A DNA stretch of 64,000 nt from Falciphora oryzae. Its lineage: Eukaryota; Ascomycota; Sordariomycetes; Magnaporthales; Magnaporthaceae. The stretch is taken from assembly GCA_000733355.1 (NCBI GenBank), contig JNVV01000001.1:3258278-3322277 (forward strand). Direction: 5' to 3'. The notes under the pieces were generated by a model. It did no database searches. It saw only the letters and a list, made by a program, of their open reading frames with translations, and was not told where the DNA came from. Positions within the stretch are counted from its first letter, which is position 1, and each line of letters starts with the position of its first letter. The position numbers and the translations under genes are program-made. This document shows, piece after piece, positions 14,549-15,950 of this stretch.

Positions 14549-15450
14549 ATGTTCAACCTCCGGCGGTTCTTCGTGACCGCGACCCTCTTCATGGGGCTGG
14601 CCGTCCTCTGCTTCTCGCAGACGGTGGCCGCGGCCAAGGGTCCCAAGATCACCGCCAAGGTCTTCTTCGACATTGAGCACGATGACAAGCCCATCGGCCG
14701 CATCGTCATTGGCCTATACGGCAAGACCGTCCCCAAGACCACCGAGAACTTCCGCCAGCTAGCCCTCAAGCCCAAGGGCGAGGGCTACGAGGGCTCCACC
14801 TTCCACCGTGTCATCAAGGAGTTCATGATCCAGGGTGGCGACTTCACCAAGGGCGACGGCACCGGCGGAAAGTCGAGTGAGTACTAATGACCTTTTGCGA
14901 ACCCGGCCCCGAGCGACTGTTACTCCTTCACCTCAATTGCAGCCCCAGCTGTTTCCTGGCCTGCGCACTCCTACGGCAGGACCCGGATGGCCGCCATTGA
15001 CAGGAGTAAAATCGGAGTGGGTTACTGACACCGCCTGTTTGATCCTGCACAGTCTACGGCGACCGCTTCGAGGACGAGAACTTCAAGCTCAAGCACAGCA
15101 AGAAGGGCCTTCTGTCCATGGCCAACGCTGGCAAGGATACAAACGGCTCGCAGTTCTTCATCACCACCGCCATCACCACGTAAGCACTCCCCTCCGCCAC
15201 CTCCTCACGAGCCCCTTGTTTGCGCGCTCGCGCTTCTCTCCGGTTACTATGTACTGACTGTTTTCCTCTTCCTCACAGGTGGCTGGACGGCCGCCACGTC
15301 GTCTTCGGCGAGGTCCTCGAGGGCTACGACGTCGTCGAGAAGATCGAGAACGTCGACAAGGAGCCCGGCGACAAGCCCAAGAAGACGGTCAGGATCGCCA
15401 AGAGCGGAGAGCTTCCTGTCCCCGAAGAAGGTATTCACGTGGAGCTGTAA
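14549..15450 (+). CDS. cpr2: Cyclophilin B, ER peptidyl-prolyl isomerase (soluble HVEL form)
   Basis: Three exons, 14549-14876, 15053-15179 and 15279-15450, encoding 208 aa. A signal peptide (about residues 1-27, hydrophobic FFVTATLFMGLAVLCF) precedes a complete cyclophilin domain. Its active-site segments are FHRVIKEFMIQGGDF (catalytic Arg), SQFFITT and WLDGRHVVFGEV (Trp of the cyclosporin pocket). The product catalyses cis-trans isomerisation of Xaa-Pro bonds during folding in the secretory pathway. The C-terminus is HVEL, an HDEL-like ER retrieval signal. A donor GTATTC at 15431 lies 20 nt before this stop and can be spliced to 15703, replacing the HVEL end with a membrane anchor (separate entry). 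Divergent from the Tlg1-type SNARE gene. Confidence 0.92.
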
Positions 15451-15702
15451 TCTCTCCTCTGTACATACCTGCCTACCTTTGCCCTGCCGTCCACCGGCTC
15501 GCCGTGCAACACACGGGTTTTAGTCATATATCCGCCTTTTTTGATTTCTGTCTTGCTAGGCTGGAACCGAATTAGAGGATATATAGACTGGGCACAAAAA
15601 AAGACGTGATGAGAATCATGAAGAACAGAAAAAAATAGAAGCTTGCAATCCTCCCACCCTTTCTCGGTTTTTACTGATTCTGTGACTTCTTCCTATTTGT
15701 AG

Positions 15703-15950
15703 CTGAATATGGCCATGCCGAGTGGGCAGCCGGGTTCAACGGCGAGCCCGCGGACCCTACAGACGCCAAGGCTCCCTCCAAGTCGACTCACCACGATGCT
15801 CCCAAGGCCGATGCTAGCGGTCCCGCCGCCTGGTCTGTCCTGCAAAAGGCCTTCTTCTTCGGCGTCATCCTCTCGGCCATTGCCTACTACGTGCGCTGGA
15901 CCAAGACCAGGGACTCGAAGCTCCCGGCTTACGAGAAGCACCTGGCCTAA
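15703..15950 (+). CDS. cpr2: Alternative last exon of cyclophilin B: membrane-anchored isoform
   Basis: If the intron 15431-15702 is removed (donor GTATTC, branch TACTGAT at about 15672-15678, acceptor TTTGTAG), the frame continues from codon Glu-Glu-Ala. It adds 82 residues, for 284 aa in total. The new tail has a Pro/Ala/Lys-rich linker, then one membrane helix (WSVLQKAFFFGVILSAIAYYV) and a short basic end (RWTKTRDSKLPAYEKHLA). Retaining the intron gives the 208-aa HVEL form. Both readings use good signals and fully open frames, so one gene could supply a luminal and a membrane-bound ER cyclophilin. I infer this from sequence alone; which form dominates is unknown. Confidence 0.72.

What the first reader, a model, noticed from the sequence alone, without database searches (positions are those of the whole stretch)
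15421..15950. One cyclophilin B gene, two possible C-termini: luminal HVEL form or membrane-anchored form
Seen: a donor (GTATTC, 15431) sits 20 nt before the HVEL stop. A matching branch site and acceptor (15701-15702) lead into an 82-codon frame with linker, one membrane helix and basic tail. Both products keep the whole isomerase domain (208 versus 284 aa). Known: HDEL-type ends retain soluble ER proteins. Inference: intron retention versus removal would switch the enzyme between free and membrane-tethered pools, giving a splice-controlled choice of ER cyclophilin location.
Basis: partly seen in the sequence, partly recalled or inferred. Interest (0 to 1): 0.75.

Follow-up and report, generated by a model that had tools for sequence, protein, structure and literature searches.

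The report
One cyclophilin gene, two ER forms
A mould gene for a protein-folding enzyme seems able to make either a free-floating or a membrane-anchored version, depending on how the end of its RNA is processed, and related moulds carry both endings.

Summary
The only cyclophilin B gene found in this genome can encode 208 aa ending EEGIHVEL or, if intron 15431-15702 is spliced, 284 aa with a linker, one membrane helix and a basic tail. Both ends are conserved. Among 245 relatives that I could parse, out of 295 listed, 109 of 110 short ones end in [HRK]-x-[DE]-L, and 123 of 125 long ones carry a hydrophobic span. In 125 of 125 long relatives (and 9 of 9 models fused to a neighbour gene) the first residue past the junction is A, D, E, G or V, as a splice after the first G of the short form's Gly codon requires. 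Short and long forms interleave on a tree of the shared core (58 changes; shuffles 71-92), some with identical cores, so they are not two paralogue clades. One database short form is named 'variant 2'.

I conclude that this is a conserved alternative 3' end giving luminal and anchored ER cyclophilin. Not shown: transcripts from this fungus, regulation, and whether the short mRNA arises by intron retention or by IgM-like polyadenylation inside the intron. Ten paper searches found no description of it.

The parts
14549..14876 (+). cypB exon 1: start codon, hydrophobic N-terminus (signal-like), start of the isomerase domain
   Evidence: PF00160 over residues 39-194 of the long form
14877..15052 (+). 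intron 1, GTGAGT...CAG, 176 nt
15053..15179 (+). exon 2
15180..15278 (+). intron 2, GTAAGC...CAG, 99 nt
15279..15430 (+). exon 3 up to the optional donor; ends in the first G of the Gly codon GGT
15431..15450 (+). short-form end: rest of Gly codon, IHVEL and stop TAA; overlaps donor GTATTC
   Evidence: 109 of 110 short relatives end [HRK]-x-[DE]-L
15431..15702 (+). optional intron 3, 272 nt, phase 1, GTATTC...TAG; CTGAT branch-like site 15674-15678; 3'UTR of the short mRNA if used
15580..15602 (+). TATATA (15580-15585) followed by seven A (15596-15602): possible intronic poly(A) signal, motif match only
   Evidence: role is inference
15703..15950 (+). exon 4: linker, membrane helix, basic tail ...YEKHLA, stop 15948-15950
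   Evidence: helix in the model of relative P0001

Best explanation
This is the cyclophilin B gene of a Magnaporthaceae-like fungus, with two mutually exclusive 3' ends. If the donor at 15431 is not used, translation runs on a few codons and ends in HVEL, so the enzyme is a soluble ER-lumen protein retrieved by the HDEL receptor. If intron 3 is spliced, the same isomerase domain is tethered to the membrane by a flexible linker and one C-terminal helix, with a short basic tail in the cytosol. Shown by sequence: both open ends here, conservation of both ends, and a junction in relatives that fits the same phase-1 donor. Inferred: topology, ER residence, and that both mRNAs are made in this fungus. 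For the short mRNA I favour (about 0.6) competition between splicing and polyadenylation inside intron 3, as in IgM, over plain intron retention. The Ile codon of GIH cannot give the G usual at donor position +5, so the retrieval signal's own codons keep this donor weak, which would let both forms persist; that step is inference.
For: Gene model and both frames. Isomerase domain PF00160, E 1.1e-50. Short end: 109 of 110 parsed short relatives end [HRK]-x-[DE]-L; Gly at the junction in 109 of 110, Gly-Ile in 104 of 110. Long end: 123 of 125 have a 19-residue span of mean hydropathy over 1.6; 114 of 125 end K-x-x-[AVS]; helix 250-277 in the model of P0001. Junction residue A, D, E, G or V in 125 of 125 long and 9 of 9 fused models. 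Identical 202-residue cores with different ends: P0201/P0198 (Fonsecaea), P0131/P0045. Interleaving on the tree. Name 'variant 2' on short form P0202. Environmental intron-free entries of both kinds, 64 short and 6 long. HDEL- and HEEL-ending HSP70-family proteins and ERD2-like loci in the same genome.
Against: No transcript from this fungus and no relative's genomic DNA could be read. The homologue lists show the best 120 of about 8,000 hits per search, and the entries are mostly gene predictions. No named strain was shown here to have both forms from one locus; the pairs are between species or between environmental entries. For some short-form clusters (for example Diaporthe P0064) no long partner appeared in the lists. 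Labels change less often than in shuffles (58 against 71-92), so there is some clustering. Environmental entries are mostly short (64 of 70), so the anchored form may be minor. The window's membrane span is only moderately hydrophobic (1.67).
Confidence: 0.8

Rival explanations
1. Both forms exist, but the short one comes from simple retention of intron 3 in an mRNA that runs to the normal downstream poly(A) site, not from polyadenylation inside the intron.
For: Intron retention is common in fungi (recalled). The donor GTATTC is weak. No AATAAA lies in the intron.
Against: It would leave a 3'UTR of more than 500 nt (HVEL stop 15450, anchored stop 15950), which fungi may degrade (recalled). Intron 3 is AT-rich like the 3' flank (55.5% and 51.2%, against 42-43% in introns 1 and 2) and holds TATATA with an A-run 16 nt on. 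These are composition and motif arguments only.
Confidence: 0.35
2. Only the anchored protein is real; the HVEL ending is what gene finders report when they miss the last intron.
For: No reads from this fungus. Some short records could be incomplete models.
Against: A missed intron would not give a functional-looking [HRK]-x-[DE]-L signal in 109 of 110 cases. A. niger CYPB was published with the signal HEEL (reference title seen only). 64 of 70 environmental intron-free entries are short.
Confidence: 0.06
3. Only the luminal protein is real; exon 4 is a chance open frame.
For: Open frames this long follow 21 of 140 acceptor-like sites in the window. Only 6 of 70 environmental entries are long.
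Against: Full-length conservation at 90% in Gaeumannomyces and 71% in Pyricularia, a conserved pre-helix lysine and tail, a hydrophobic span in 123 of 125, and six long environmental entries.
Confidence: 0.03
4. The two forms belong to two paralogous genes or to lineages that each keep one form, and the second end in this window is a relic.
For: Labels cluster more than shuffled ones (58 changes against 71-92). Some short clusters have no long partner in the lists.
Against: Two paralogues would give few changes; there are 58, with 22 of 74 cherries mixed and three at zero distance. In this genome exon 4 matches one place only and the other cyclophilin loci are 61% identical or less apart from one 76% fragment of 37 residues. 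Both ends in this window look intact.
Confidence: 0.07

Closest known systems
Immunoglobulin mu heavy chain, secreted versus membrane form (passages of PMC5928244)
   Same: One gene; a last exon that can end by itself or be spliced to a downstream membrane exon; the enzyme or antibody domains stay the same.
   Different: Here the soluble form ends in an ER retrieval signal rather than being secreted, the donor lies inside that signal's codons, and intronic polyadenylation has not been shown.
Aspergillus niger CYPB with ER signal HEEL (Derkx and Madrid 2001; reference title seen; paper not read)
   Same: Soluble ER cyclophilin B, the short form.
   Different: The title names only the soluble end; whether its gene has the second end was not tested.
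Saccharomyces Cpr4 (passage of PMC1618848) and Drosophila NinaA (recalled)
   Same: Secretory-pathway cyclophilin with a putative transmembrane segment.
   Different: A dedicated gene for the membrane form, not an alternative end. Cpr4's group was found only in Saccharomycotina in that survey. Neither sequence was fetched here.
Fungal CypA-type genes with mitochondrial and cytosolic isoforms (passages of PMC3688495, and PMC1618848)
   Same: One fungal cyclophilin gene serving two locations, in some cases by alternative splicing.
   Different: Those forms differ by an N-terminal mitochondrial signal; here the choice is at the C-terminus and within the secretory pathway.

Membership tests
Cyclophilin B (ER cyclophilin) | Cyclophilin isomerase domain | tested here: met
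   PF00160 over residues 39-194, E 1.1e-50; 161 PDB sequences match at E up to 0.001
Cyclophilin B (ER cyclophilin) | N-terminal signal peptide | tested here: inconclusive
   Hydrophobic N-terminus by eye and helix 4-22 in the model of relative P0001; no signal-peptide predictor was available
Cyclophilin B (ER cyclophilin) | HDEL-type C-terminal ER signal | tested here: met
   HVEL in the short form; conserved pattern in 109 of 110 short relatives; function of HVEL not tested. PMC5430845 gives the pattern (K/R/H/Q/S/A)(D/E/N/Q)EL, which V at -3 does not strictly fit
Membrane-anchored cyclophilin (Cpr4, NinaA type) | C-terminal transmembrane helix | tested here: met
   Hydropathy 1.67 in the window and over 1.6 in 123 of 125 relatives; helix 250-277 in the model of P0001; prediction only
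Membrane-anchored cyclophilin (Cpr4, NinaA type) | Orthology to Cpr4 or NinaA | not tested
   Neither sequence was fetched; PMC1618848 puts Cpr4 in a separate group
IgM-type soluble/membrane 3' end choice | Donor inside a terminal exon that also has its own stop | tested here: met
   Donor 15431, stop 15448-15450
IgM-type soluble/membrane 3' end choice | Downstream exon encoding the membrane segment | tested here: met
   Exon 4, 15703-15950
IgM-type soluble/membrane 3' end choice | Poly(A) site used inside the intron | not testable with these tools
   Only composition and a TATATA/A-run motif; no reads
IgM-type soluble/membrane 3' end choice | Regulated shift between the forms | not testable with these tools
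   No expression data

The most novel reading that the evidence does not exclude
Across many filamentous ascomycetes one overlapping code sets where ER cyclophilin works: the codons of the retrieval signal (G-I-H-x-E-L) are also the 5' splice site, and because Ile codons cannot give the preferred G at +5 they keep it weak, so splicing and intronic polyadenylation compete and set the ratio of luminal to membrane-tethered enzyme. Budding yeasts would have divided the two jobs between separate genes.
Probability: 0.4. Interest if true: 0.75.

Novelty: new variant of a known kind. Interest (0 to 1): 0.62.

Why it matters
If both mRNAs are made, a widely conserved fungal gene sorts one folding enzyme between free and membrane-bound ER pools by RNA processing alone. 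The database records I saw name one form or the other, so work on CypB location, secretion engineering or deletion phenotypes may have considered half of the gene's output. It is also a clean test case of a splice site lying inside a protein-sorting signal.

Tried and rejected
I looked for relatives' DNA with a degenerate pattern for EGIHVEL-stop in genome contigs (0 matches) and viral contigs (0 matches), and with the 109-residue N-terminal part in viral contigs (15 pattern matches, none confirmed).

A second ER cyclophilin in the genome: the locus at G000:C1:3225492 (61% identical over part) starts without a signal-like N-terminus and continues into a TPR-like region, read by eye as Cyp40-type. 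RNA structure in intron 3: z -1.73, 9 of 200 shuffles fold at least as well; not pursued. Alternative acceptors 15729 and 15762 keep the frame; no relatives were checked for them. The open-frame chance test inside the window is unimpressive (21 of 140) and I do not lean on it. My first splice of the neighbour TRM112 was one base off and was redone.

Rows dropped: three searches listed 120 each, 295 distinct. 50 of 295 did not match the anchor (56 in the stricter); they are partly other cyclophilins and partly Pezizomycotina rows with changed anchors. P0255 (ends GIQLENDKDEL) was counted among the 131, as were fused models, and set apart; it was left out of the tree. The binomial p ignores relatedness and is not used. 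P0217 and P0253 are both named Elasticomyces elasticus (long and short) but were not counted as a pair, because I did not show that they are the same fungus. The 70 environmental entries were typed by hand from the tables, leaving out other cyclophilins; the longest contig is under 1.5 kb for 64 of 70. Class names of fungi are recalled.

Papers: ten searches. Passages only were read of PMC10575979, PMC2322954, PMC3688495, PMC13170295, PMC5430845, PMC1618848, PMC3240610 and PMC5928244. Derkx and Madrid 2001 and Joseph 1999 were seen only in reference lists. No paper in the listings, and no passage read, described the two ends; listings show only the top papers and most subscription papers are not held, so an earlier report cannot be excluded.

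Full report
What is there. The window (G000:C1:3258278-3322277, a 50.2 Mb assembly in 123 contigs) carries one cyclophilin B gene on the + strand. The products are 208 and 284 aa and share residues 1-202. The closest relative listed is a Gaeumannomyces hyphopodioides protein, 90% identical over the full long form, so the source is probably a member of the Magnaporthaceae (inference).

Is it more than chance. In this window alone an open frame as long as exon 4 follows 21 of 140 branch-plus-acceptor sites, so the frame by itself proves little. Relatives decide it. Three protein searches, each showing its best 120 of about 8,000 hits, gave 295 different proteins. I parsed them at the Ser-Gly...Pro-x-Glu anchor just before the junction: 245 parsed and 50 did not. 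Of the parsed ones, 110 stop within ten residues, 125 go on to a long tail, 9 are long models fused to a TRM112-like protein, and one (P0255) has an odd KDEL-like extension.

The short end. 109 of 110 short relatives end in [HRK]-x-[DE]-L: GIHVEL 56, GIHAEL 25, GIRAEL 10, and rarer forms including one GIHEEL; the exception runs on four residues (GIHVELLVRA). The residue at the junction is Gly in 109 of 110 (the other is EGTKAEL, a register shift), and Gly-Ile in 104 of 110. The same genome has an HSP70-family locus with a frame ending HDEL, another of 1,035 residues ending HEEL, and ERD2-like matches at two places. M. oryzae has two ERD2 orthologues (passages of PMC5430845); the signal pattern that paper uses, (K/R/H/Q/S/A)(D/E/N/Q)EL, would not include HVEL. 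HNEL is reported as the ER signal of a Neurospora FKBP (passage of PMC1618848).

The long end. 123 of 125 long relatives have a 19-residue span of mean hydropathy over 1.6, the median remainder after it is 19 residues with net charge +3, and 114 of 125 end K-x-x-[AVS], most often EKTMA (33) or EKSMA (24). The linker varies freely, but a lysine just before the span is invariant in the 44-row and 56-row alignments. AlphaFold2 on relative P0001 gives one C-terminal helix, 250-277 (mean pLDDT 73.2, much of the linker below 50). The tail has a lysine at -4 but none at -3, so it is not a canonical dilysine signal (rule recalled).

Both ends belong to one gene. The window shows it directly. In relatives the test is the junction. 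If long forms use a donor after the first base of the short form's Gly codon, the residue after the anchor must have a codon beginning with G, that is A, D, E, G or V. It does in 125 of 125 long relatives and 9 of 9 fused models, and in 131 of 131 with a stricter anchor, where these residues make up 48% of the linker. Short and long forms also interleave. Identical 202-residue cores with different ends occur for Fonsecaea pedrosoi P0201 against F. monophora P0198 and for environmental P0131 against Lasiosphaeria hispida P0045; pairs within Cryomyces, Hypoxylon, Colletotrichum and Xylaria are 96.5-98.5% identical. On a tree of 244 cores the label changes 58 times and 22 of 74 cherries are mixed, three at zero distance. 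That is fewer than for shuffled labels (71-92, mean 80.4, 200 shuffles), so there is some clustering, from annotation habits or real preference, but far from the few changes that two paralogues would give. In this genome exon 4 matches one place only, and none of the other cyclophilin loci fetched showed an H-x-[DE]-L-type end in the scan.

Are both mRNAs made. The evidence is indirect. A 212-aa short form is named 'peptidyl-prolyl cis-trans isomerase B, variant 2' in Phialophora macrospora. Seventy hand-listed environmental entries read through without introns; the longest contig is under 1.5 kb for 64 of 70, so many are probably spliced cDNA (inference). 64 are short and 6 long. A short and a long one, P0220 and P0218, agree at 99% of 213 core positions. 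This fits both mRNAs existing in nature, with the short one commoner in this sample, which is biased by the two queries that covered the core alone. No reads from this fungus were available.

How it probably works. Intron 3 is 272 nt, against 176 and 99 for the other two. Its AT content, 55.5%, is near that of the downstream 3' flank (51.2%) and above introns 1 and 2 (42-43%). It holds TATATA at 15580, one of 3 on the + strand of the window, and seven A at 15596-15602; it has no AATAAA. I therefore favour, at about 0.6, competition between splicing and polyadenylation inside the intron, as in the IgM heavy chain (passages of PMC5928244). Alternative 3' end processing is described in M. oryzae (passages of PMC3240610). 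The donor is GTATTC, while the three other introns read here (cypB 1 and 2, TRM112) begin GTGAGT, GTAAGC and GTAAGC. Ile codons end in T, C or A, so the signal's own codons exclude G at +5. This would keep the donor weak and both forms available; it is an inference from few introns and a recalled consensus.

What it would do. A luminal form would be retrieved by the HDEL receptor. The anchored form would keep the same isomerase at the membrane, perhaps near membrane-protein clients, as a NinaA-like chaperone (recalled analogy). In a survey of 16 fungi the group of yeast Cpr4, which has a putative transmembrane segment, was found only in Saccharomycotina (passage of PMC1618848). One gene with two ends in filamentous ascomycetes against two genes in yeast is a testable evolutionary reading. 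Transcripts of cypB rose together with bip and pdi under secretion load in A. niger (passage of PMC2322954), so ER stress is the first condition to test.

Novelty. A soluble-versus-anchored choice by alternative 3' ends is a known kind of system, and fungal cyclophilin genes with two locations are known through their N-termini (passages). The new element is an ER retrieval signal whose codons contain the donor, with both ends seen in Sordariomycetes, Dothideomycetes, Chaetothyriales and lichen fungi (groups recalled from the names listed). Ten searches of the held library gave no description of it; most subscription papers are not held.

Noticed in passing
16434-17090 region; TRM112 coding 16434-16619 and 16708-16904 (+): The gene 484 nt downstream of the long cypB stop, same strand, is TRM112-like (PF03966, E 1.2e-8 after removing one intron). 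Nine listed relatives are gene models in which cypB is fused to this neighbour, so the pair is conserved; the fusions may be annotation errors or read-through.
   Followed up: partly
12951-13601 (-): Upstream neighbour is a syntaxin 6/10/61-type SNARE (PF09177, E 4.5e-19), another secretory-pathway gene.
   Followed up: no
15868-15950 (+) and relatives: The cytosolic tail of the anchored form ends in a conserved K-x-x-[AVS] (114 of 125) and a lysine before the helix is invariant; no known sorting signal was matched.
   Followed up: partly
P0255, P0133: Two relatives have altered short ends: Paraphaeosphaeria minitans GIQLENDKDEL, a KDEL-type end, and Lasiosphaeria miniovina GIHVELLVRA, which runs past the signal. 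These may be real variants or gene-model slips.
   Followed up: no
L017 and L024 (G000): In the same genome one HSP70-family frame ends HDEL and another of 1,035 residues ends HEEL, so several signal variants coexist with HVEL.
   Followed up: no
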